This document shows, piece by piece, positions 23,702 through 42,573 of a stretch of 64,000 nt of DNA. The first letter of the stretch is position 1, and the number at the start of each line of letters is the position of its first letter. The DNA is from Bacteriovoracia bacterium (lineage in GTDB: Bacteria > Bdellovibrionota > Bacteriovoracia > Bacteriovoracales > Bacteriovoracaceae). The notes beneath the pieces were generated by a model that was not told the DNA's origin, made no database searches, and saw only the letters and a list, made by a program, of their open reading frames with translations. Both the position numbers and the translations under genes were made by a program. Location: the NCBI GenBank assembly GCA_030431635.1, contig JAUIIL010000003.1, positions 62,001-126,000 of the forward strand, given 5' to 3'.

Positions 23702-24476
23702 TTTAGATTTTAAAACTCAGGCTCTTGTACTGCATAAGACTCCTTTTCGAGATAGAGATTTGGTTGTGAAGCTAATCTCTCAATCCGGAAGCTTGATGAG
23801 TGTTCTTTTTTATGGAGGCCGCGGTGGAGGAGTTAAAAAGAAATCATCTTTAGTTGAAGTTGGTCACTGTTTGAACCTTAATTTAAGAAAAAGCTCTAAA
23901 CTGGAAAATAATCTTTTAACGGCCAAAGAGTGGAGTTTAAAGTGGTCTCCCAATCACATTCGTTTAAATCATACGGCTTTTTATTTAATGAGTTTCTTCT
24001 CTGAAATTTTTTTAAAACTAGGTCAAGAGGCCCATGATTATGAAGAGGATGAGCATAAAGAGCTTTATATTATTTTATCAAATGCACTTTTTTACTTAGA
24101 TGAGAGTGTTCAACAATCAGATTTTAAAATTTATGCCCATTTAAGTACTTTTCTCTCAAAACTCATCTATCAACTTGGAATTTCTCCAGATTATGAAAGT
24201 TGTTATAACTGTTCAAAGGAATTAAAAAACGATTTCACATTTAATGTGCAAAATGGAGTTTTTAGTTGTTGTGAAAATGAAGGATTTAATAAGAGTGAAT
24301 TTGAAAGTGCTTTTAAACTTTATAGAAAACTTAAAAGCTCCTTTAGCCTGAAATACCCTCAATCCCTAGAGGAAGATGATAACGACTATAGCGTATCAAA
24401 GAATTTATTTCATTTTTTTTGTTATCAATATCAATTCAATCCAAGTAACTATAAATCATATTCTTTAGTTTTTTAA
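23694..24476 (+). CDS. recO: DNA repair protein RecO
   Basis: 260 aa. The N-terminal OB-fold begins with the standard FKTQALVLHKTPFRDRDLVVKL and GSLMSVLFYGGRG segments. The central helical domain is followed by a cysteine pair CYNCSKEL and CCEN, the remains of the RecO zinc motif. RecO anneals single strands and, with RecR, loads RecA on SSB-coated DNA. Start at ATG 23694, overlapping the helicase stop by 8 bases, rather than TTG 23685. Overlaps the end of the convergent gmhB by 12 bases. Confidence 0.88.
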   Translation: MNSLDFKTQALVLHKTPFRDRDLVVKLISQSGSLMSVLFYGGRGGGVKKKSSLVEVGHCLNLNLRKSSKLENNLLTAKEWSLKWSPNHIRLNHTAFYLMSFFSEIFLKLGQEAHDYEEDEHKELYIILSNALFYLDESVQQSDFKIYAHLSTFLSKLIYQLGISPDYESCYNCSKELKNDFTFNVQNGVFSCCENEGFNKSEFESAFKLYRKLKSSFSLKYPQSLEEDDNDYSVSKNLFHFFCYQYQFNPSNYKSYSLVF

Positions 24477-24971
24477 ATAAAGAACAAAATCAGAAAGACT
24501 TTGAAAACTTGTTTTCCCTTTTGGATCTATGTTTCTAGTATTAATGAGAATACCTTGAACCTTTGCGTTTTCTGCACACTCTATATCAGAAATCTTATCC
24601 CCTAACATAAAACTCTCTTGAAGGTTTATTTCCCATTTTTGCGCAAGTTGAAGAAGCATTTTGGGCCTTGGTTTGCGACAATCACAATTATCCTCAGGAG
24701 CATGAGGGCAGTAGGCAAGATCTTTAATTTGAAACCCCATTGGGGCAAAATCTTGCTGCATTCTCTCGTGAATAAGATGAATACACTCTTCTGAGAAAAT
24801 TCCTCTTCCAACTCCTGACTGGTTAGTGACAATAAAAAGCTCAAAACCCATATGAGAGAGCTCTTTAAGAGAATTTTTCACATCATCAAAATAGTGTATA
24901 TCCTCATGGTCATGGAAATAACCCGGGTCTTTATTGATAGTTCCGTCTCGGTCAAGAAATATGGCCTTCAT
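24465..24971 (-). CDS. gmhB: D-glycero-beta-D-manno-heptose-1,7-bisphosphate 7-phosphatase
   Basis: 168 aa HAD phosphatase. Nucleophile motif LDRDGTIN (Asp7, Asp9), motif II IVTNQSG, the zinc-binding loop CPHAPEDNCDCRKP with three Cys and a His, and the final MLGDKISDIECA. These are the marks of the histidinol-phosphatase/GmhB family; the zinc loop is of the GmhB type. It makes heptose 1-phosphate for lipopolysaccharide inner core. Sits opposite an MsbA-like exporter, with 43 bases between their starts. Confidence 0.9.
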   Translation of the reverse strand: MKAIFLDRDGTINKDPGYFHDHEDIHYFDDVKNSLKELSHMGFELFIVTNQSGVGRGIFSEECIHLIHERMQQDFAPMGFQIKDLAYCPHAPEDNCDCRKPRPKMLLQLAQKWEINLQESFMLGDKISDIECAENAKVQGILINTRNIDPKGKTSFQSLSDFVLYLKN

Positions 24972-25014: not shown

Positions 25015-26727
25015 ATGATTGAATTTATTAAAAAGACTTTCCCCTATATTAAGCCTTATTGGGTAAGGGGACTCATCGGGGTTCTTCTTGCTATTCCTAT
25101 GGCCGGAATCAAAGCCGCTCAGGCTTATTTACTTAAACCTCTTTTTGATAAAGGACTCAGTAGCACATCAACCTTTGATGATGCTCTTTATTACGCAATT
25201 ATTTTTGTAGGATTTGCTCTACTAAATTACCCGATTCGTTTTTTGCATTACTATTATATTAAAGGTGTGTGTGAAAAAGGAATTTGTTCTCTCAGAGAGA
25301 GAATCAATCAGACATTTCAACGTCTTCCCTTGAAGTTTTACTCCACGAGTAAGCAAGGAGAGTTAATGTCAATTGCAATGAATGATACTTTAATCGTATC
25401 AAATGGTTTTAAATTCGCCGTTGATCTTATTCGTGAACCTTTAACAGCTTTAGGTCTTTTTGGTGTTCTTCTTTACAATGACTGGCAGTTAACACTTGTC
25501 TTTTTTGCTATTGTTCCAGTGATCTTAATGGTGATGAATTTTACAGGGAAATGGGTTAAGCATTATGAATCAGAATTGCGTGAGCAAATGGGGCTTATTA
25601 ATCATGAAATAGCTGAAACTATTCAAGGACAAAAAATTATTAAGGCCTTCAATCTACAATCTTTTGTAGATGGACGATTTAAAAAGAGCCTTGATAAATA
25701 CCTTTTCTTTTGGAAGCGTTACGCCCGTGTTGAAGAAAATGCCCATCCTCTAATTGAACTGCTCTCTGCTCTGGGATTTTCAGCTGTCATTCTCTTTGCT
25801 CATTCTCGTATCGTTTCAGGTGAGTTAACAAATGGTGGCTTTTTAAGTTTCATTGGCTCTCTGGTTTTTTTAAGTGATCCTATCAGGAGATTATCAGATG
25901 CAGTGGTAAGATTAAATCAAGCTAGGGCCTCAGGTGATAGAGTTTATCGTATTATAGATACACCTTTAGAGATTGATGAGGGCAATGAAGAAATACAAGA
26001 ATTCAAAGAAAGACTGGAATTTAAGAATGTTACTTTTTCTTATGGAGAAGGGGATGTTTTAAAAGATTTTAATCTCAGTGTTGAAAAAGGGCAAAGGGTT
26101 GCCCTTGTTGGCTTATCTGGCTCTGGAAAATCGACATTAGTTAATCTTATCTTAAGGCTTTATGATATAGAAAAAGGTGAAATCCTGATTGATTCAAAAC
26201 CAATTCAAAAAATTAAAATGAGCTCGCTTCGTTCGTTATTTTCTCTTGTGAGCCAAGATGTTTTTCTTTTTAATGACACAGTTAAAGAGAATCTTCTTGT
26301 GGGAGACAATCACTCAGAGGGAGAACTTGAACAAGCGCTTGAAGTTTCTTACGCCAAAGAGTTTACCCAAAAACTCCCAGGTCAACTTGAAACTCAAATA
26401 GGGGATAGAGGAACAAGGCTCTCTGGTGGCCAGTCCCAACGGATTACGATAGCAAGAGCTTTTTTAAAAGATACTCCGATACTCTTATTTGATGAAGCCA
26501 CATCTGCTCTTGATAATGAATCAGAAAAAATTGTTCAAAAAGCTCTTGATGAAGTCGCTGGAAATAAAACAGTGATTGCAATTGCCCACAGGCTCTCAAC
26601 GATTCAAAACTATGACAAAATTGTTGTCATGAACGAAGGTCGAAAAATTGAAGAAGGAACCCACGAAGAACTAATAGCTCTTCGTGGTGAGTATTTTAAA
26701 CTTTATGAGCTTTCAAAAAGGGATTAA
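25015..26727 (+). CDS. msbA: ABC exporter, MsbA-like lipid flippase
   Basis: 570 aa half-transporter with six membrane helices (about 15-290) and a C-terminal ATPase. Walker A is VGLSGSGKS (about 366-374), Q-loop SLVSQDVFLF, signature LSGGQSQR (about 470-477), Walker B ILLFDEATSALD and the H-loop AIAHRLST. Length and fusion order fit MsbA, which flips lipid A-core across the inner membrane; a drug exporter of the same architecture cannot be excluded. Neighbouring gmhB and lptF point to lipopolysaccharide. Ribosome site weak. Confidence 0.88.
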   Translation: MIEFIKKTFPYIKPYWVRGLIGVLLAIPMAGIKAAQAYLLKPLFDKGLSSTSTFDDALYYAIIFVGFALLNYPIRFLHYYYIKGVCEKGICSLRERINQTFQRLPLKFYSTSKQGELMSIAMNDTLIVSNGFKFAVDLIREPLTALGLFGVLLYNDWQLTLVFFAIVPVILMVMNFTGKWVKHYESELREQMGLINHEIAETIQGQKIIKAFNLQSFVDGRFKKSLDKYLFFWKRYARVEENAHPLIELLSALGFSAVILFAHSRIVSGELTNGGFLSFIGSLVFLSDPIRRLSDAVVRLNQARASGDRVYRIIDTPLEIDEGNEEIQEFKERLEFKNVTFSYGEGDVLKDFNLSVEKGQRVALVGLSGSGKSTLVNLILRLYDIEKGEILIDSKPIQKIKMSSLRSLFSLVSQDVFLFNDTVKENLLVGDNHSEGELEQALEVSYAKEFTQKLPGQLETQIGDRGTRLSGGQSQRITIARAFLKDTPILLFDEATSALDNESEKIVQKALDEVAGNKTVIAIAHRLSTIQNYDKIVVMNEGRKIEEGTHEELIALRGEYFKLYELSKRD

Positions 26728-26734
26728 TCATTTC

Positions 26735-29700
26735 TTAGTTTTCTTCTGGCAATATGCCTTTCGATCTTAATATCGCGTTAGGATCTGGCTTCTTCCCTTG
26801 CTTAAATTTATCATAATTATCCATTGGGTGATCTAGGCCACCTTTCTCAAGAATATTCTTTCTCCATCTCATCATGACGTCTTTACTAAACCCAGCGTTT
26901 TTCATTTCTTGAAAAGCATCAGAAGCCAAAAAATCACTCCAATAGTAGAGGTAGTAGCCTGCGCTATAACCAGCATGAAACCCACCCCAAATATGGTTGA
27001 ATTGAAAGACACGGTGAAGATTGCTATCAGTTACAGGAAATCCACCTTCTTCAAAAACTTCATCTTCAAATTGAGCAAGGTCTTTAACTCCTTGATACTC
27101 TTTTGTATGCAGCTTCATATCCATGAGGGCCCACAGGTATAAACTCAGGTCAGAACGAGCCGTATGAAAGTTTTTATTAGCAATGATTCTCTCAATTAAA
27201 TCTGAAGGAATAGGTTCATTTGTTTGGTAATGTTTCGCAAATGATTTAAGAAACCACTCTTCATAAAGAAAGCTCTCCATGATAGTTGAAGGAACTTCAA
27301 CAAAGTCCCAAATAACACTTGTTCCAGAGTAAGTGCTATATTTCACTTGGGAGAGCAGTCCATGAAGACCATGGCCAAGTTCATGCAGAAGAGTTTCAAC
27401 CTCATAAAGAGTCAAAAGAGTAGGTCTTCCTTTTTTAGGTCTCGAAACATTCAGAACATTAATGATATGAGGTCTTCTTTTTTGACTCTGATCAAGATAG
27501 GAACTCATCCAAGCGCCATCTCTTTTATTTTCTCTTTGATAAATATCTAAATAAAACAAACCTTGCTCTTTACCTGTTTTAGAGTCAACAACAATAAATG
27601 TTTTCACTCCGTCTTCTAGAGTTGGGATATTAGTGACCTCTCTAAATTCGACATTAAACTTCTCCTTAACCATATTCTGAATTCCCTTCAGCGTCTGTTC
27701 AAATTCAAAGTATGGCTTTAACATTTCATCAGAGAGGTTCGCTTTCTCCTCCTTGAAAATTCTGAAGTAGTAAGATCTATTCCAAGGCTTTATCTGGACT
27801 TCTCCGTTATACTTAGTTTGAATAAACTCTTTAAATTCCAGCTCATCCTTCTCCATCTTGATTCGAGTTTTTTCAATAAGCTCCCCTAAAAAGTCATAAA
27901 CAGTCTCTTTATTTCGTACCATCTTCTTAGAAGTAGAGTAACTAGCGTAGTCCTCAAACCCCATGAGTTCAGAAAACTCTTGTCGGTATTCAAGAAGCTT
28001 TAACATCTCTTCATGAGTATTGTTTTCTCCCGCTTTGGCGACATTTGTATAAACACGATAGAGTTCTTTTTGTGTCGCTTCATCGCTAATATACTGAAGT
28101 GTTTGGCTAGTAAGTCGGCCTTGACCGTCAAAAAGATAGCCTTCTAAGCCTTGTTCTTGAGCATTTTCCTGGGCCATTTCTAACATCTCTTTAGGAACTT
28201 CATCTAAGTAAGTATCATCGTGAATAAGAAATTTATTTTCTTGTCTTGATACTTGAAGTTTTTTTGTCCAATCTTGAGAAACTTTAGTGGCTTCAATCTC
28301 AATTTCAAGTAATCTTCTCTTCACTTCAGGGTCTTTAATCTGGACACCACTCTCTTCCAGAGTTTCTTTGTATTTAGTTACTAAAAAGCGATCTTCTTTT
28401 GAAAGTCTTTTAAAAGAGGGAGCTTCCATTACATCAATAATTTTCTTGTAAATTGTTTCGTTTTTACTAAAAAGATCACCAAAAACAGCGAGCTTCTCAC
28501 TCATATAGGAATTAAGTTTCTCAATTTCTGGACTTTTACTCATTGAATAACGATTAAAGACGATACCAGATGCCTTTTCAAGCTCTTCATTCATAGATTC
28601 AAGCTCAAGAATAAAATTTTTAAATGTCGGTTTTTTTGGAGAATCTATTAACTCTTGAAGCTTAACCATCATTTGATCGTATTCAGAATCAAAATAGCTT
28701 TTTAAAATTTTATGATCTATTTGATCAAGTGGAAGAGCATTAAGTGGATTAACGCCAGTTTGTTTAAAAAGCTCTCTGGCCTTATCGGCGACAAGGTCAA
28801 TTCCTTTGTTTTTTATCAGGGCTTCAACATCAGGTTCGCTTCCAGTGAGTTTAATAAACTCTTCCATTGGAGACATGACTGTCCCCTGACTAAGCATATT
28901 CTCTCTAAAGCGCTTAAAAAACTCTCTATCATAGAGAAGACCATTACTCTTGATATGCTCAAAGAGTGCAGCCGAGATGATTTCAGAGTACATATAAACA
29001 TAGTACCCGGCAGCATACTCAGAAGAAGCAAAGTAATGTCCAATTCTTAGAGAGAGTAGTGGTCTATCAAATTCTCTGGTGTACTCATCTAAATCAAAAA
29101 TATTATATTCAAAATCTTTAACATCTCCTATTTTGTTTGCGCTCTCTGAATGCCAGGCAAGATCAAGGAGGTTTGTGGCGGCCCAGCGATCAAGAAAAGC
29201 GGCACTTCCATAATCTTGAGATTTCTTCATCGCTTGAATGAGTTCAGCTGGGATGCTCTCGCCTGTTTCATAATGCTTGGCCCATTGTGAAAGAAAATCA
29301 ATTTCAGAGAAGTAGTTTTCCATAAAAGTAGAAGGAGCTTCAGAGAAATCCATCAATTCTGAAGTTTCATGCAAGTCACTTGGTCCAGAGATACTGGCCA
29401 TTGATTTCATTTCAACATCTGAAAAAATCCCATGAAGGACATGTCCCCACTCATGGGCCAGCGTTTCGACTTCTCCGTGAGTGAGAAGAAGAGGTCCACT
29501 ATCTGGTTTCACAAAGTTCATGACAGCTGAAGCGAAAGGAACTTTTCTTTTCCCATTCTCCGTCGACTGAAGTCCCATTGTGAGCATCCATGCGCCACCT
29601 TTTTTGCCATCTCTAGTTTGATAATCAAGATAGACATAACCCACGACCTCTCCAGTTTCGTTGTTCTCTACTTTGATCACAGGAGAGTCTTTCGTAAAAC

Positions 29701-32700
29701 CAGGAAGGTCTGTGATAGTTGCTTTAACGTTATAGAGTTTTTCCGTCAGATCAAAAACAGCTTGAAGAGTATTGTTAAACTCAAAATAGGGTTTTAATTG
29801 GTCCCCATCAAAGCTGTATTTCTCTTTCATGAGAAGTTTACTGTAATAAGACTTATCCCATGGTTTCATCTTTGGAGCATCAGCCCCTTCTAATTGGTGA
29901 TAATAGTCTTCGAGTATTTTTTCATCTTTCTCTAGGTAAGGTTTTACTTTCTCTCTTACTTGAATTGAGAGCTCATAAGCTTTCTCAGGAGAGCCAACCA
30001 TTCGATCATCTTCATTAATGATCATATGAGCATAGCTTTTATACCCAAGAAGAGTGGCCCTTTCATGGCGAAGCTTTGCAATTTCCTTAATAACAGGAGC
30101 ATTCTGATAGTTTTTGTAACGTCCTATGAGAGAGAGAGCATTATAAACTTTTTCTCTGGTTGCTGGGCTCTTCGCATTAGAGAGAATTTGACTAGCGAGA
30201 ACCTGGCTTTGATAGGTGAGTAAATAACTTCCCTCTGGAAGCTTTTTTTTCTGAGCTAAGTCAGCGAGCGAGTCAAGAACAGACTTAGGCACTCCTTCAA
30301 GTTCACTAACTTCAAACTCTGTACTAAGTTCTTTGATTGTTTCTTTGAGATTTTCTGAGAACTTAGAATAATTTTCTTGAAGAGTGGCATCAATCTGAGA
30401 AAGTCTTTGACGAGCTTCTTTTTCTAAATAGAACCCTTCTTTTTGAAATCTCTTAAGAATTCTTTGGATATAGACCTGTCTTTCATGACTAAGGTTTTTA
30501 AAAGCGGCAGAATTGGCAACTTCATTAAACTTATTAAAAATAGCTTCATTTTGGTAGATTTCTTTTTTAAAACGACCAAATTCAATAAGCATATCTTTAT
30601 AGAGAGCTTCGTTTTTCTCACCTCCAATAGCTTGGGAAATATTAAGAGGGTGACTAAAAATATAAGAAAGCTCATCATCTAATTTTTCAAATGGTTTTAT
30701 GAAATTATTAAATGTCGTGTTTTTTGTTTTCTTTTCAGAGAGCTCTTGAATCCCTTTTCTTGCTCTCTCGAAAGCATCAACGGCAAACTTGGCCACATCA
30801 TCAGTTGTTAACTTGTCAAAGGCCCATGTATTATCAGGATTTTTATTATTTAAAATGAGCTCTCGGATTTCCTCTATAGGTTTTGCTTGATTAGCATCAA
30901 ACTTAATGGTCATTTTCGAAGCCTCGTCTTCTACAAGTCCATTAAGACGTAAAAGTGCAGCAGGATCTGGTTCTGAGCCAGTAATTTTCTTGAAAGCCTT
31001 AAGAGGTTCTATTGTTAAACCTCTTGAGAGCATGTTATCCCTATAGCTTTTAAAAAAGTTTTTATCATAAAGAAGATTATTCTTTTTCACATACTCAAAT
31101 AAGGCAGCTGATATTCCTTCTGACATTAAATAACTATAGTAACCAGCCGAGTAGGCCATAGGTTCACTAAAAAAATGACTGAACGTTGTAGAGCGAATAA
31201 ACTCTGGTGTTAACTCTCTATCTTCTTGAGTTCTTTCAAAGATTTTTTGTTCAAATTCATAAATATCATCAACTTTCTCCCCACCAGGAGTGTGCCAAGC
31301 GAGATCGAGTAGAGCATAATTGGCTTGAACTACAAAACGATTTCCCTGACCAAAAACAGAAGCTTGCTTGAGTTTTTCCACGAGCTCCATAGGAATAACT
31401 TCTCCTGTCTCATAGTGCTTAGCGAATGTTTTTAAAAAACTCTCTTCCATTAGATAGTTTTCCATAAAAGTTGAGGGGACTTCCACAAAGTCAAGAAGCT
31501 CAGAGGTACTGTAAAGCTCACTCGCTCCTGCAACACTGGCCATACTTTTAAGTCTCACATCTGAGAGAAGTCCATGCAGACCGTGGCCTAGTTCATGTAA
31601 GAGAGTGTTAACTTCATCAAAACTTAATAGAGTTGGGCCTTCAGCGGGTTTGGTAATATTAAGAGCATTAAGAATTAAAGGTTGAATTCTTTTATCTCCT
31701 TCAAGAGCTTGAAGTCTAAAACTATACATCCAAGCACCACCCTTCTTTCCTTCTCGGGCAAAAAGGTCATGGTAAAAAAGACCAATGTCTTGTTTTAGTT
31801 TTTTGTCATAAACTCTATAGGTAAGAACATCGTCTCTATATTTAGGGAGAGAGACCTTGATGAATTCAATATCATAAAGAGTTGCAGCTAATTGAAAAAC
31901 TCCCTCTAGGGTTTGCTCCAATTCAAAATAGGGCTTAAGCGCTTCTGAATCAAAACGATAGGTTTCGTTTTGATAAAGCCTACTATAATAAGCACGCTCC
32001 CATGGTTTAATGGAACTTCTTCCCGTTTTCTCTTTGAAGAAGGTCATAAGGGCTTCATCGTCTTTTTCTTTAAAATATTTTGCACTCTCTTTGATTCCTT
32101 GAATAAACTCAGTGGCCTTCTCTGGAGTTTCTGCCATTCTCTCCATAGAAAGAACATAATGAGCATGGCTTTTGTAACCCAAAAGCTTTGCTTTCTCATC
32201 TCTGAGTCTTGCAATTTTTTTTGTGAGCTCTTTGTTATCAAAAGTAGGAGTGTTTCCTAAGAGAAAGGAGGTCTTGTAAATTTTTTCCTGGGTCTTAGGG
32301 TTAGAAGCAAATGACATAACCGAGTAGTAATCATTGTTTAGATAATCGATGACGTATTTACCAACGTGTCCTTTCTCTTTTGCCTTGGCGGCCATATTTT
32401 TCATATAGCTCTTAGGAACACCTTCAAGTTCATCTGCTGATAGAACGACATAAACAAAATTTTTACTCTCAGAAAGATTCAAAACCCATTTTTCGGTGGC
32501 TTCTTGCAGTTCTTTTGTCAGCTTAGCAAAAAGGATTTTATTCTCAGGACTTAAGTTCAGACCTTGGTTTTTAAACCTGTTATAAACTTTTTCAACATAC
32601 TTATTAATTTCTTCTTGGTAGTTAGATTTTTTCTCATAAAGTTTCTTAACTCTTTTATAAAGTTTTTCATTTTGATAAATTTCTCTAGAGAATTGATCAA

Positions 32701-33094
32701 ATTCAGCTCTAACCTCACTTAATAATTGAGAAAGCCTCTCATTTGATTGATCAAATAATTTCAAATTATCAGCGTAAAGAAAGGTAAAAAGAATATTGTT
32801 ATCAAGTTTTTCTAGTGGGAGGAGGGTGTTTTCAATCGTCGGTTTTGATTTTGAGTTAATAATTTTTTGAAGCTGCGCTCTGGCTTCATTAAAAGATTCA
32901 GACGCAAACTTGGCCATATCTTCAATACTGAGTTCATCAAAAGCAACAGCGTTGTGAAGTTTGCCATTATCAAAAATAAGCTTGGAGATTTTCTCTGAGG
33001 ATTTAGCGATAGAGCTATCAAAGTGGATGTTACACTCATCTGCGTAACTTGAAAGAGTAAAAAGAAAACACAACAGGGCCCAAAACCTATTCAT
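26735..33094 (-). CDS. Secreted giant protein with three tandem M3 zinc metallopeptidase units
   Basis: 2119 aa in one uninterrupted frame. I start it at ATG 33094, with AAAGGA 7 bases before it, giving a Sec signal peptide cut after about Ala18 (TLSSYA). Three full-length units of about 690-710 residues follow, at about 25-710, 725-1425 and 1430-2119. Each resembles thimet oligopeptidase / oligopeptidase A / Dcp. Each keeps the zinc site: H500-E501-H504 with E538, H1214-E1215-H1218 with E1252, and H1904-E1905-H1908 with E1933. Each also keeps a GAWM strand before the site, a DF[VS]E[VA]PS helix and an AGYY motif after it. Each unit ends in a G[SK][EK]PD motif. M3 enzymes are normally single-unit cytoplasmic or mitochondrial proteins of about 680 residues. 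A role in digesting peptides outside the inner membrane is inferred. Confidence 0.93.
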   Translation of the reverse strand: MNRFWALLCFLFTLSSYADECNIHFDSSIAKSSEKISKLIFDNGKLHNAVAFDELSIEDMAKFASESFNEARAQLQKIINSKSKPTIENTLLPLEKLDNNILFTFLYADNLKLFDQSNERLSQLLSEVRAEFDQFSREIYQNEKLYKRVKKLYEKKSNYQEEINKYVEKVYNRFKNQGLNLSPENKILFAKLTKELQEATEKWVLNLSESKNFVYVVLSADELEGVPKSYMKNMAAKAKEKGHVGKYVIDYLNNDYYSVMSFASNPKTQEKIYKTSFLLGNTPTFDNKELTKKIARLRDEKAKLLGYKSHAHYVLSMERMAETPEKATEFIQGIKESAKYFKEKDDEALMTFFKEKTGRSSIKPWERAYYSRLYQNETYRFDSEALKPYFELEQTLEGVFQLAATLYDIEFIKVSLPKYRDDVLTYRVYDKKLKQDIGLFYHDLFAREGKKGGAWMYSFRLQALEGDKRIQPLILNALNITKPAEGPTLLSFDEVNTLLHELGHGLHGLLSDVRLKSMASVAGASELYSTSELLDFVEVPSTFMENYLMEESFLKTFAKHYETGEVIPMELVEKLKQASVFGQGNRFVVQANYALLDLAWHTPGGEKVDDIYEFEQKIFERTQEDRELTPEFIRSTTFSHFFSEPMAYSAGYYSYLMSEGISAALFEYVKKNNLLYDKNFFKSYRDNMLSRGLTIEPLKAFKKITGSEPDPAALLRLNGLVEDEASKMTIKFDANQAKPIEEIRELILNNKNPDNTWAFDKLTTDDVAKFAVDAFERARKGIQELSEKKTKNTTFNNFIKPFEKLDDELSYIFSHPLNISQAIGGEKNEALYKDMLIEFGRFKKEIYQNEAIFNKFNEVANSAAFKNLSHERQVYIQRILKRFQKEGFYLEKEARQRLSQIDATLQENYSKFSENLKETIKELSTEFEVSELEGVPKSVLDSLADLAQKKKLPEGSYLLTYQSQVLASQILSNAKSPATREKVYNALSLIGRYKNYQNAPVIKEIAKLRHERATLLGYKSYAHMIINEDDRMVGSPEKAYELSIQVREKVKPYLEKDEKILEDYYHQLEGADAPKMKPWDKSYYSKLLMKEKYSFDGDQLKPYFEFNNTLQAVFDLTEKLYNVKATITDLPGFTKDSPVIKVENNETGEVVGYVYLDYQTRDGKKGGAWMLTMGLQSTENGKRKVPFASAVMNFVKPDSGPLLLTHGEVETLAHEWGHVLHGIFSDVEMKSMASISGPSDLHETSELMDFSEAPSTFMENYFSEIDFLSQWAKHYETGESIPAELIQAMKKSQDYGSAAFLDRWAATNLLDLAWHSESANKIGDVKDFEYNIFDLDEYTREFDRPLLSLRIGHYFASSEYAAGYYVYMYSEIISAALFEHIKSNGLLYDREFFKRFRENMLSQGTVMSPMEEFIKLTGSEPDVEALIKNKGIDLVADKARELFKQTGVNPLNALPLDQIDHKILKSYFDSEYDQMMVKLQELIDSPKKPTFKNFILELESMNEELEKASGIVFNRYSMSKSPEIEKLNSYMSEKLAVFGDLFSKNETIYKKIIDVMEAPSFKRLSKEDRFLVTKYKETLEESGVQIKDPEVKRRLLEIEIEATKVSQDWTKKLQVSRQENKFLIHDDTYLDEVPKEMLEMAQENAQEQGLEGYLFDGQGRLTSQTLQYISDEATQKELYRVYTNVAKAGENNTHEEMLKLLEYRQEFSELMGFEDYASYSTSKKMVRNKETVYDFLGELIEKTRIKMEKDELEFKEFIQTKYNGEVQIKPWNRSYYFRIFKEEKANLSDEMLKPYFEFEQTLKGIQNMVKEKFNVEFREVTNIPTLEDGVKTFIVVDSKTGKEQGLFYLDIYQRENKRDGAWMSSYLDQSQKRRPHIINVLNVSRPKKGRPTLLTLYEVETLLHELGHGLHGLLSQVKYSTYSGTSVIWDFVEVPSTIMESFLYEEWFLKSFAKHYQTNEPIPSDLIERIIANKNFHTARSDLSLYLWALMDMKLHTKEYQGVKDLAQFEDEVFEEGGFPVTDSNLHRVFQFNHIWGGFHAGYSAGYYLYYWSDFLASDAFQEMKNAGFSKDVMMRWRKNILEKGGLDHPMDNYDKFKQGKKPDPNAILRSKGILPEEN

Positions 33095-33263: not shown

Positions 33264-34580
33264 GTGTCAGAACAAAATTTATTGAATATGAGTGATCTCG
33301 TTAGTTTATGCAAAAGAAGGGGTTTTATTTTTCAAAGCTCAGAGATCTACGGAGGCCTTGGTTCGTGCTGGGATTATGGCCCACTTGGAATTGAATTAAA
33401 GAATAATATCAAAAACAGTTGGTGGCGCTCGATGACTTACAGAGAAGATGTCGAGGGAGTTGATGCTTCTATTTTAATGCATCCAACAACTTGGAAAGCT
33501 TCCGGTCATATCGATAATTTTTCTGATCCTTTAGTTGATTGTAAGGCTTGTAAGTCCCGCTTTAGAGCCGATCAGATTGATCTGAAGGCTGCTTGTCCAA
33601 ATTGTGCAGAAAAAGACTCCTTCACAGAGCCTCGAGAATTTAATCTTATGTTTCAAACTTTTATGGGACCAGTGCAAGACTCAGCTTCTGTTGTTTACTT
33701 AAGACCTGAGACAGCCCAGGGGATATTTGTAAACTTTTTAAATGTTCAATCAACAATGAGAAAAAAGCTACCCTTTGGTATTGCTCAGATTGGTAAAGCT
33801 TTTAGGAACGAAATTACTCCAGGGAACTTTATTTTTAGAACCAGGGAGTTTGAACAAATGGAAATGCAGTATTTTGTAAAGCCTGGAACTCAAAAAGAAT
33901 CTATGGAATCATGGAAGGAAATCCGCTACAACTGGCATCTTAATAATGGTCTTCGGGCGGAAAAATTGCGTTTTCATCCCCATGGTGAAGGAGAGCTTGC
34001 TCACTATGCTGATGCAGCACTCGATATTGAATACGAATTTCCTATTGGTTGGGGAGAAATGGAAGGAATTCACTCCCGAACAGACTTTGATCTAAAACAA
34101 CACCAAGAGTTCTCAGGAAAAAATTTACATTATGTTGATCAATTAGATGGAAACAATAAATACCTCCCTTACGTGATAGAGACATCTGTAGGATGTGATA
34201 GATCTCTTCTGGCGATACTATGTGATGCTTACCGTTTAGAAAATAAAGGGCAAGAGGATGAGAGGGTTGTGATGAAATTCAAGCCTTCTTTGGCCCCGAT
34301 AAAAGTCGCTGTTCTTCCACTAGTGAAAAAAGAAAAGCTTGATACTCCTGCTAAAAAGCTACTGGCCGATTTGCAGCAAGATTATAAGTGTGAATATGAT
34401 GTGGCAGGTTCCATTGGTAAGCGCTACAGAAGACAAGACGAAATCGGAACACCTTTTTGTATCACTTTTGATTTTGATTCACTTGAAGACAATGCCGTGA
34501 CTATTAGAGATAGAGATTCTATGAAGCAAGAAAGAATTTCTTTAGATAAAGTGAAAGAGTATTTAAAGCAAAAGATTTAA
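33264..34580 (+). CDS. glyS: Glycyl-tRNA synthetase, dimeric class II type
   Basis: 438 aa, GTG start with AAGGGG 7 bases upstream. N-terminal segment [20 protein letters not shown] and WDYGPLG are typical of the alpha2 GlyRS found in Gram-positives, archaea, eukaryotes and some proteobacteria, not the alpha2beta2 GlyQS type. Class II motifs follow: [23 protein letters not shown]-type motif 2 region (about 190-215), and the final motif 3 [11 protein letters not shown] Cys-x2-Cys pair (CKAC, CPNC) near 93-115 may bind zinc. The anticodon-binding domain is at about 350-438. It charges tRNA-Gly. Confidence 0.95.
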
Positions 34581-39449: not shown

Positions 39450-40886
39450 GTGAATCTTCAAAATATGATTTCTGCTCAAGAGCTTATTGAGCGTAAAAAT
39501 AGCATAAAAAAAATTTTTTTCTATCGAATTTGCGGGACCGGTATGGGAGCTTGTGCTTGTCTTCTTAAAGAACAAGGATACGAGGTTGAAGGAGCCGATT
39601 TAAGTTTTGGCCCCCCCATGGATGCCTATTTAAGAAAATCAGGCATTGCTTTGTACGATTTGAAAGAAGTTGATTCTCAATTCTTGCAAAAATATGATCT
39701 TATTGTGGTAGGTAACTCTGTTCCAAGAGTTAGTGAACATGCACAACTCATCGAAGAGTGCTCTGTTGCTTTTACTTCTTTTCCCACAATTCTAGGGAGT
39801 TTTGTTTTAAACAAACAAAATGTCATTGGAGTTGCAGGAACCCATGGCAAAACAACCACTACTTATTTTTTAACCCAAATGCTAGAGAAACTTGGAAAAA
39901 AGCCAGGCTACCTTATTGGTGGAATTATGGATGGTCGCCCTCCTTCAAGGTTAGGGGATGGGAGTTACTTTGTCATTGAGTCAGATGAATATGACAGTGC
40001 TTACTTTCAAAAATATTCCAAGTTTAGACAATATGAAATTGATCACCTGATTTTAACTTCTCTGGAATTTGATCACGCTGATATTTTCAATGATATTAGC
40101 GATATTGAGAATGAATTCATTGAGGGGATAAAAACTATTAACTCGACCTTTATTTTCAATAATGACTACCCTTCTTGTTTAAAACTTCACGATCTATTTA
40201 AATCAAAAGGGGTTTGGTTTTTATATGGAGAGACTTCTCCTATCGGTCCAGTAGATATGAAGTCAACCAATACAGGAAGTACATTTGGTCTTAATCTCGA
40301 TGGAAATATAACTATTTTTGAAACAAATATTATAGGCAAGCATAATATTTTAAACCTAACAGCTTGTATTCTTTTTTGTTTAAATGAAGGTTTTTCAGTC
40401 GATGAAATCAAAAAATCATTGAAGGAACTCAAGCTTGTTAAAAGAAGACAAGAACTCCGAGGAAAGTATAGAGGTGTTAATGTTATAGATGATTTTGCTC
40501 ACCATCCCCGTGCTGTCTCTCTTACTATTGAGGCCATAAAGCAAACTTATGAAAATAAAATAGTTGTTGTTTTTGATCCTGTTTCTGCTACAGCAAGGAG
40601 TAACCTTTTTCAGAATGAGTTTCTTGAGAGTTTATCTGGAGCGAACAAAGTAATTACCTGTGAGCCTCAAATAAAAACAACGGCTCAAAATAGAGAAAAC
40701 TTAGATACTCTTTTTATTGTTAATGAACTCAATAAGAAAGGAATAGAATCTGTTAATGTTTCAAGTTTAGAGCAGTTAAGAGAAAAAATAGATAGCTTTA
40801 TTGACGAAGAGTCGACTTTATTAATCTTGAGTAATCGTAATGCTTTAGGGTTGTGGCAATCAGCTTTCATCGATGAAATACATTAA
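39450..40886 (+). CDS. mpl: UDP-N-acetylmuramate:L-Ala-gamma-D-Glu-meso-DAP ligase
   Basis: 478 aa, GTG start with AAAGGA 6 bases upstream. Mur ligase family: N-terminal ICGTGMGACACLLKEQGYEVEG-like Rossmann segment (about 28-50, CGTGMGACACLL), P-loop GVAGTHGKTTTT (about 128-139), ESDEYDSAYF and the later FAHHPRAV motif, which is the Mpl/MurC signature. Mpl attaches recycled murein tripeptide to UDP-MurNAc; in a predator this would let peptides from prey or own wall re-enter synthesis. Its end overlaps the next gene by 14 bases. Confidence 0.92.
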   Translation: MNLQNMISAQELIERKNSIKKIFFYRICGTGMGACACLLKEQGYEVEGADLSFGPPMDAYLRKSGIALYDLKEVDSQFLQKYDLIVVGNSVPRVSEHAQLIEECSVAFTSFPTILGSFVLNKQNVIGVAGTHGKTTTTYFLTQMLEKLGKKPGYLIGGIMDGRPPSRLGDGSYFVIESDEYDSAYFQKYSKFRQYEIDHLILTSLEFDHADIFNDISDIENEFIEGIKTINSTFIFNNDYPSCLKLHDLFKSKGVWFLYGETSPIGPVDMKSTNTGSTFGLNLDGNITIFETNIIGKHNILNLTACILFCLNEGFSVDEIKKSLKELKLVKRRQELRGKYRGVNVIDDFAHHPRAVSLTIEAIKQTYENKIVVVFDPVSATARSNLFQNEFLESLSGANKVITCEPQIKTTAQNRENLDTLFIVNELNKKGIESVNVSSLEQLREKIDSFIDEESTLLILSNRNALGLWQSAFIDEIH

Positions 40887-42573
40887 TACGACTTTATTTC
40901 TGATTTTTTTCAACGCCTATAGTTCTTTGGGAACTGTATTTAAGCATTTGGATATAAAAAAAACTCAACAAGAGTATCAAAAGCTTCACCACGACTTTTT
41001 TAAGAAAGCTTGTCAGAATGGAGCCGATCATCGGTATCAAAAACTGCTTAAAGTCTACCGAGGAAGTGGGTACTACCTTCCATCCAATAACAGTGATATC
41101 GATATAAAAGTTATCAAAAAAAACTTACCTCTTATTAAAGAGAAGATGTCGTGGCAAAAAAAACAATTAGAAGGAATACGAAAGAGTAAGTTTCCTAAAT
41201 TTGAAAAGATTTCTCAAAAATTGAAAAGTAATGTAGATGCTTTACTTGAAATGAAAAAAGAATATCAACTGGCCCTGAGTTCTTCTGAAAGACAAAATTA
41301 TTTATTAAAATCAAGAACATTGTTGCGAGATCTTAAAACAGAGTTTGATATCTTTTTAAATAAAATTCCTTTTTTACTTAGTTTTGGTTATCCCGTTGAT
41401 CATTTAGAAAATAGAAAAAGCTTTGATAAGTACAAGTCATTGGGGAAAAAGTATAAACACAAGGCCAATGATATTTTTTTTCAAAGAAAAATTTATGAAG
41501 ATGGAGCTCAAGATCCAAACCATTCTCGATCGGATGGTTTTTTAAGATCAACGATTGATACAGTTTTTTTAGAAATGAAAACTCAAAAAGATTTTATTTC
41601 TGAAAACCTTCGTTACGATCTGGAATATATTTTGAAATCTATTAAATATGTTTTAGGAAGAGGGAGAACCATCCAAATAAAACGACAAAGAGAGTGGTTA
41701 GCAAGAACACAAAAAGCTTATCAGTACTATGAAAATTTGATTAAGGACTCGAAGGAAAAATCTGATGAAAGCGCAAAATTAGGCTTAACAAAGACACAAT
41801 TACTCATGAAGAAAAAAGCAAAATCTACTTATGAATTAAAAGATTTTGTTTTAGAAAAACAAGCCTTCACTTATGATTATTGGAGACAAAAATCGGAGTT
41901 AATGAAAGCTATTTTTGTTATTGAAACCATTCTTTTTAATGAAGTGGGTGATGTTGATGGTCCTGAGGCCCTTGAGAGAGATGATGTTGCTCAAGTTGTG
42001 ATAAACAGAAAAGGAGAAAAGTTTTACCGAACGATTCAAAGAAATGAAGCCCTCTATCATTATTTAAATAAAAAATTATCTGATAAAGAAATTCAACAAG
42101 AGCACTGGTTAAATGTTCTTTTTAAAACTGCCGAATTCTCTTTTACTTTTTACTATATCCCTGGAGTTTCTCATATCTTTTGTCCAGATATGTCCAGAAG
42201 AGGAAAAAAACTAAGACAGAAGAATATAGAGATAGCTATTAAGCGCCTTATGAAGCCCAGGGAAGAATTTAAGGCCATCCGTTATTTTTCAAGAGCTTCA
42301 ATGAGAGGCCGAATTGATATGACTGAAATTTGGAGCAAGCATAAGGCAATCCCTGAAAGAGCAGGAAAAAAAATTGGTTACCAGGGTCATTGGATTAAAA
42401 AATACCAAAGAAAGAAATATACTTATCTTTACAGCTTTATTGATCCTAAGAATAGGCAGTATGAGGTTTTAAAATTTGATGAAAAATATCTTGTTCTTAG
42501 AAAAGAAAAAAAAGGGCCTGTGTTTTATCAATACAGAGATCCTCATCTTTTTACTTATTTTGTTAAAAACTGA
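40873..42573 (+). CDS. Secreted helical protein with possible SleB-like hydrolase segment
   Basis: 566 aa, signal peptide at 1-20 (LFLIFFNAYSSLG). The first 330 residues are Lys/Glu-rich helices, likely coiled coils. Residues about 355-400 read ETILFNEVGDVDGPEALERD then VAQVVINRKGEKFYRTIQ, which resembles the E-x-G-E...VA-x-VV-x-NR pattern of SleB/cell-wall hydrolase 2 proteins, and FTFYYIPGVSHIFCPD could be the matching later strand. The call is by eye. A basic C-terminal domain (about 480-566) follows. The operon partner mpl suggests the wall. Confidence 0.55.
   Translation: MKYINTTLFLIFFNAYSSLGTVFKHLDIKKTQQEYQKLHHDFFKKACQNGADHRYQKLLKVYRGSGYYLPSNNSDIDIKVIKKNLPLIKEKMSWQKKQLEGIRKSKFPKFEKISQKLKSNVDALLEMKKEYQLALSSSERQNYLLKSRTLLRDLKTEFDIFLNKIPFLLSFGYPVDHLENRKSFDKYKSLGKKYKHKANDIFFQRKIYEDGAQDPNHSRSDGFLRSTIDTVFLEMKTQKDFISENLRYDLEYILKSIKYVLGRGRTIQIKRQREWLARTQKAYQYYENLIKDSKEKSDESAKLGLTKTQLLMKKKAKSTYELKDFVLEKQAFTYDYWRQKSELMKAIFVIETILFNEVGDVDGPEALERDDVAQVVINRKGEKFYRTIQRNEALYHYLNKKLSDKEIQQEHWLNVLFKTAEFSFTFYYIPGVSHIFCPDMSRRGKKLRQKNIEIAIKRLMKPREEFKAIRYFSRASMRGRIDMTEIWSKHKAIPERAGKKIGYQGHWIKKYQRKKYTYLYSFIDPKNRQYEVLKFDEKYLVLRKEKKGPVFYQYRDPHLFTYFVKN

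What the first reader, a model, noticed from the sequence alone, without database searches (positions are those of the whole stretch)
26735..33094. One secreted polypeptide with three complete M3 zinc peptidase units
Seen: an uninterrupted 2119-codon frame with a Sec signal peptide and three tandem units of about 700 residues. Each keeps HExxH, the third zinc ligand Glu, a GAWM strand and an AGYY motif. Known: M3 peptidases (thimet oligopeptidase, oligopeptidase A, Dcp) are single-unit, mostly intracellular enzymes of about 680 residues. Inference: a chain of three active sites outside the inner membrane could pass peptides between sites with different cleavage preferences, which fits a predator digesting prey proteins. 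I know of no described triple-unit M3 protein.
Basis: partly seen in the sequence, partly recalled or inferred. Interest (0 to 1): 0.88.

Follow-up and report, generated by a model that had tools for sequence, protein, structure and literature searches.

The report
Exported triple-unit M3 zinc peptidase
A bacterium of the Bacteriovoracaceae group carries one exported protein made of three complete, diverged copies of a well-known zinc peptide-cutting enzyme, where all other members of the enzyme family seen in this study have one copy per protein; it is a new arrangement of a familiar enzyme, not a new kind of enzyme.

Summary
Pfam Peptidase_M3 matches three times over nearly its full length. 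Every catalytic residue invariant in a 46-sequence M3 alignment is present in all three units. AlphaFold models of units 2 and 3 (pLDDT 91, 93) match crystal structures of Dcp, plant oligopeptidase and neurolysin over the whole length. The units are only 28-40% identical and the frame is clean, so an assembly or frameshift artefact is very unlikely. No other multi-unit M3 protein was seen in 129 genomes of the class, among the listed best matches in 369 genomes of the phylum, or in 79 loci from a wider scan. Synteny and tree give an origin: an exported M3 gene sits between ABC-transporter and GlyRS genes in this genome and one relative (there a single unit, split beside an integrase gene); 25 other relatives have the ABC gene near GlyRS without it. 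Units 1 and 2 are sisters. Best reading: an exported three-site oligopeptidase trimming short peptides, with diverged specificity. Predator role and peptide hand-over are untested. Exported single-unit M3s are common. New variant of a known kind.

The parts
26735..33094 (-). triple-unit exported M3 peptidase gene (2119 aa)
   Evidence: open frame, SD-like site, three PF01432 matches
33035..33094 (-). putative Sec signal peptide, about residues 1-20 (cleavage probably SYA|DE)
   Evidence: sequence read by eye; the G034 homologues have similar signal peptides
30875..33034 (-). unit 1 (residues 21-740): H500, E501, H504, E538, H640, Y648, Y652, Y655; 9-residue insert before the Glu ligand; His-Tyr loop SEPMAY
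28775..30874 (-). unit 2 (residues 741-1440): H1214, E1215, H1218, E1252, H1353, Y1360, Y1364, Y1367; the same 9-residue insert; loop ASSEY
   Evidence: model pLDDT 90.9, TM-score 0.84-0.87 to 4ka7, 5l43, 1y79
26738..28774 (-). unit 3 (residues 1441-2119): H1904, E1905, H1908, E1933, H2034, Y2043, Y2047, Y2050; no insert before Glu; loop WGGFHAGY
   Evidence: model pLDDT 92.9, TM-score 0.90-0.92 to 1y79, 4ka8, 5l43
25015..26727 (+). ABC transporter gene on the downstream side, convergent (synteny anchor)
   Evidence: PF00664 and PF00005; 58% identical to the ABC beside the G034 C-part
33264..34580 (+). glycyl-tRNA synthetase-like gene on the upstream side, divergent (synteny anchor)
   Evidence: class II synthetase domains; 83% identical to the gene beside the G034 N-part
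24465..24971 (-). HAD phosphatase gene (synteny anchor)

Best explanation
The protein is an exported multi-site oligopeptidase: after Sec export three M3 units, each with its own zinc site, work side by side in one chain on short peptides in the periplasm or beyond it. Shown: three full-length M3 domains, all family-invariant catalytic residues in each, a clean single frame, and the M3 fold for units 2 and 3 by model. Supported by tree and synteny: the units belong to one lineage of exported M3s that entered the ABC/GlyRS interval before the split from the relative G034, and the fused chain arose by in-frame duplication of the mature part (units 1 and 2 last). Inferred: all three are active, with partly different subsite preferences because the loops lining S1 and S2 differ; the products would be short peptides for uptake.
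For: Pfam and the genome search: three near-complete domains in one frame. Invariant columns of the 46-sequence alignment, including HE.GH, D, E, His and three Tyr, hold in all units. Models and PDB fold matches over the whole length. Five-member clade of U1, U2, U3 and two exported G034 M3s, support 100/98; U1+U2 100/99. Same site in G034 with a single unit; sites without M3 in 25 relatives. Unit 2 begins with MTIKFDANQAKPIEEIRELILNN, matching CNIHFDSSIAKSSEKISKLIFDN just behind the unit 1 signal peptide, as a duplication of the mature part would give. The units differ where the K-26-DCP structure has ligand contacts (Thr484, Val486, Arg488, Ser597; PMC5157764): the 9-residue insert of U1 and U2, and three different His-Tyr loops. 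Somatic ACE is a precedent for paired domains with different specificities (PMC4950319).
Against: No activity data. Units 1 and 2 lack the Gly-Gly of the His-Tyr loop that most M3s keep, so one or both could be weak or inactive; carboxypeptidase D and polyserase-2 have inactive domains (PMC1435904). No second sequence of the triple protein is held, so selection on each unit cannot be measured. Monophyly of the three units without G034 is neither shown nor rejected (AU p 0.41), so the order of duplications is open.
Confidence: 0.6

Rival explanations
1. Only one or two units are active; the others are structural or regulatory, as in polyserase-2 (one of three active) and carboxypeptidase D (two of three).
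For: Units 1 and 2 have altered, longer His-Tyr loops without Gly-Gly and a 9-residue insert beside the zinc Glu; precedents in PMC1435904.
Against: No catalytic residue is lost in any unit; degenerate peptidase domains usually lose catalytic residues (general knowledge).
Confidence: 0.2
2. The chain is a precursor cut after export into three separate enzymes, as polyserase-1 is.
For: Linkers between the domains exist (about 20 residues between units 1 and 2, about 7 between 2 and 3); polyserase-1 is processed this way (PMC1435904).
Against: The linkers are short, above all between 2 and 3; no processing site could be recognised.
Confidence: 0.08
3. Gene dosage: three equivalent sites, no division of labour.
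For: Tandem duplication is the apparent origin; separate M3 gene arrays exist elsewhere (five adjacent genes in Akkermansia glycaniphila, L115).
Against: The units are only 28-40% identical and differ in the subsite loops, which is a lot for equal copies.
Confidence: 0.1
4. Artefact: separate genes joined by a sequencing or assembly error, or a repeated assembly block.
For: The assembly is a draft (19 contigs) and no second copy of the triple gene is held.
Against: Units too different to be an assembly repeat; no stop in 2119 codons and none at either junction; no start codon at the unit 2/3 junction, only one ATG (728) at the unit 1/2 junction; no signal peptide before units 2 and 3.
Confidence: 0.02

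Closest known systems
Single-unit M3A peptidases: E. coli Dcp and oligopeptidase A, K-26-DCP, thimet oligopeptidase, neurolysin, plant organellar oligopeptidase
   Same: Each unit has the zinc site and the His/Tyr catalytic residues; units 2 and 3 have the whole fold by model.
   Different: One unit per chain; the window protein has three, with a signal peptide; units 1 and 2 have a 9-residue insert between HExxH and the Glu ligand.
Exported or lipoprotein single-unit M3s (e.g. Rheinheimera, Marinifaba, Bacteroidales; G034 C31)
   Same: Same domain, exported; G034 C31 is in the same clade.
   Different: One unit per chain.
Somatic ACE (family M2, two catalytic domains)
   Same: Works-like parallel: tandem zinc peptidase domains with different specificities in one exported chain (PMC4950319).
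   Different: Different family (M2), two units, membrane-anchored, animal.
Carboxypeptidase D; polyserase-1 and -2
   Same: Three tandem peptidase domains in one chain (PMC1435904).
   Different: Unrelated peptidase families; some of their domains are inactive.

Membership tests
Peptidase family M3 (Pfam PF01432) | Profile match above the curated cut-off over the whole domain | tested here: met
   Three stretches, each 302-344 bits against a cut-off of 27, profile 2-456, 5-455, 2-456 of 457
Peptidase family M3 (Pfam PF01432) | HExxH plus downstream Glu zinc ligand | tested here: met
   H500/H504/E538, H1214/H1218/E1252, H1904/H1908/E1933; the spacing in units 1 and 2 is 38 instead of 29
Peptidase family M3 (Pfam PF01432) | Conserved His and Tyr of the Dcp/TOP catalytic loop | tested here: met
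   Invariant in the 46-sequence alignments
Peptidase family M3 (Pfam PF01432) | M3 fold | tested here: met
   Units 2 and 3 by AlphaFold and Foldseek; unit 1 by sequence only (its best single-unit relatives are 36-38% identical)
Peptidase family M3 (Pfam PF01432) | Peptide cleavage | not testable with these tools
   Needs purified protein
Dcp or oligopeptidase A equivalog (NCBIfam NF007624, NF008159) | Score above the equivalog cut-off | tested here: not met
   912.2 against 944 and 870.8 against 927, summed over the whole three-unit protein; it should not be named dcp or opdA
Dcp-type peptidyl-dipeptidase | Arg at K-26-DCP position 488 (a substrate-channel contact shared with E. coli Dcp) | tested here: not met
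   Leu, Met and Trp in units 1-3; an M3 enzyme, but not shown to be a dipeptidyl carboxypeptidase

The most novel reading that the evidence does not exclude
A three-site exported M3 peptidase, confined to one Bacteriovoracaceae lineage, in which duplicated units have diverged into three complementary specificities that together reduce peptides to transportable pieces.
Probability: 0.3. Interest if true: 0.65.

Novelty: new variant of a known kind. Interest (0 to 1): 0.47.

Why it matters
It would be three full catalytic units of the M3 family in one chain, a bacterial parallel to ACE and carboxypeptidase D, with natural controls: a single-unit homologue at the same site in a near relative, and the same site without it in the rest of the family. 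It makes the question of why peptidases are fused in tandem testable in a simple system.

Tried and rejected
Assembly or frameshift artefact: rejected. Units lacking the M3 fold: rejected for units 2 and 3. Search for other multi-unit M3s: class, phylum with unit 2 (only the best matches are listed, none in a frame over 800 aa except this one), genome contigs (its patterns fell largely on the general HELGHGLH motif, so it sampled ordinary M3s), plasmids (in the rows listed the three parts of the query fall on single 2-kb genes). A triple gene in G034 broken later: N- and C-parts complement to one unit and half-by-half trees show no conflict, but the C-part's nearest unit cannot be told. Literature searches for tandem M3 proteins found none in the held open-access papers.

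Full report
Observation. The region's long frame is on the minus strand, 33094 down to 26735. The ATG at 33094 follows AAAGGA and opens a typical Sec signal peptide (read by eye). 2119 codons carry no internal stop where about 155 would be expected in a shuffle. Pfam PF01432 matches three times, each over nearly the whole 457-position profile. The genome has one more M3 gene of ordinary 670-aa length on another contig.

Anatomy. Unit 1 is residues 21-740, unit 2 741-1440, unit 3 1441-2119. Identities: U1-U2 40%, U1-U3 32%, U2-U3 29%. All columns invariant in an alignment with 43 other M3 proteins, including E. coli Dcp and oligopeptidase A, are kept in all three units: HE.GH, the Asp and Glu of DFxE, the His and the three Tyr of the catalytic loop. 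Differences are local. U1 and U2 have 38 instead of 29 residues from the first His to the Glu ligand. The His-to-Tyr loop reads HFFSEPMAYSAGYY, HYFASSEYAAGYY and HIWGGFHAGYSAGYY in U1-U3, where ordinary M3s have HIFxGGYSAGYY. In K-26-DCP the corresponding places hold ligand contacts of subsites S1 and S2 (PMC5157764). U3 has Trp before DFVE as in ordinary members of the same taxonomic family; U1 and U2 have Leu and Met; Dcp has Arg. These mappings are inferences from alignment.

Fold. AlphaFold models of U2 (pLDDT 90.9) and U3 (92.9) match M3 crystal structures over the full length, TM-score 0.80-0.92 by query length, with Dcp, K-26-DCP, plant oligopeptidases and neurolysin at the top. The insert of U2 is among the least certain parts (pLDDT about 67-70).

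Artefact check. The units are too different to be an assembly repeat; both junctions are in frame without stops; one start-like codon lies at the first junction and none at the second. Codon usage of the units correlates with that of the window's genes (0.94, 0.84, 0.83).

Relatives. Within the class (129 genomes) all listed full-length M3 hits are in frames of ordinary length except this gene. Among the listed best matches of 369 phylum genomes to U2, none but the window's own lies in a frame over 800 aa. Of 79 loci from a wider scan none holds two M3 motif sets in one frame. These searches do not cover UniProt or eukaryotes.

Origin. In the nearest relative by GlyRS (G034; its contig of 190,295 bases has the length of the record 'Bacteriovoracaceae bacterium isolate new MAG-398'), the N-part of an M3 gene with a signal peptide lies beside GlyRS and its C-part beside the same ABC, HAD and RecO genes as in the window. 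Together they make one unit, broken just after GGAW; an integrase gene stands directly beside the C-part, so a mobile element probably split it. Of 28 further GlyRS loci, 19 have the ABC gene within about 140 bp of GlyRS and 6 within about 650-1170 bp; none has an M3. The tree puts U1, U2, U3, the G034 locus copy and a further exported G034 M3 (C31) in one clade, 100/98, apart from the housekeeping M3 of the same genomes; U1 and U2 are sisters, 100/99. Whether U3 split off before or after the G034 divergence is open (AU p 0.41); branches are long.

Mechanism. Established knowledge: M3 enzymes enclose their site in a channel and take peptides under about 17-20 residues (PMC9266445; PMC5157764). 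An exported chain of three such sites would trim oligopeptides left by other proteases. Three complementary specificities are plausible from the loops; hand-over between sites is not supported by anything seen. That the host is a predator was not tested; its family includes known predators (general knowledge).

Comparison. By sequence it is M3; it scores below the equivalog cut-offs for Dcp and OpdA. In architecture it resembles somatic ACE, carboxypeptidase D and the polyserases. Exported single-unit M3s, many of them lipoproteins, are frequent in the loci read here. Verdict: real, a new domain arrangement of a known family, moderately interesting.

Noticed in passing
L115:45-10654 (Akkermansia glycaniphila): Five adjacent M3 peptidase genes on one strand, forming one clade: a gene array instead of a fused chain.
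   Followed up: partly
L126:3215-5746 and L127:1288-5674 (G034): An M3 gene split after GGAW, with a tyrosine-recombinase gene and an excisionase-like gene (by eye) beside the C-part; the other side holds an alpha/beta-hydrolase gene and a possibly SIR2-like gene (by eye). Probable large integrative element.
   Followed up: partly
L063:8576-12839: Two adjacent M3 genes with apparent signal peptides in an Acidobacteria MAG.
   Followed up: no
window 26738-30874: Codon usage of units 2 and 3 correlates less with the window's genes (0.84, 0.83) than that of unit 1 (0.94).
   Followed up: no
window 40873-42573: 566-aa protein with no Pfam match, overlapping the end of a Mur-ligase-like gene.
   Followed up: no
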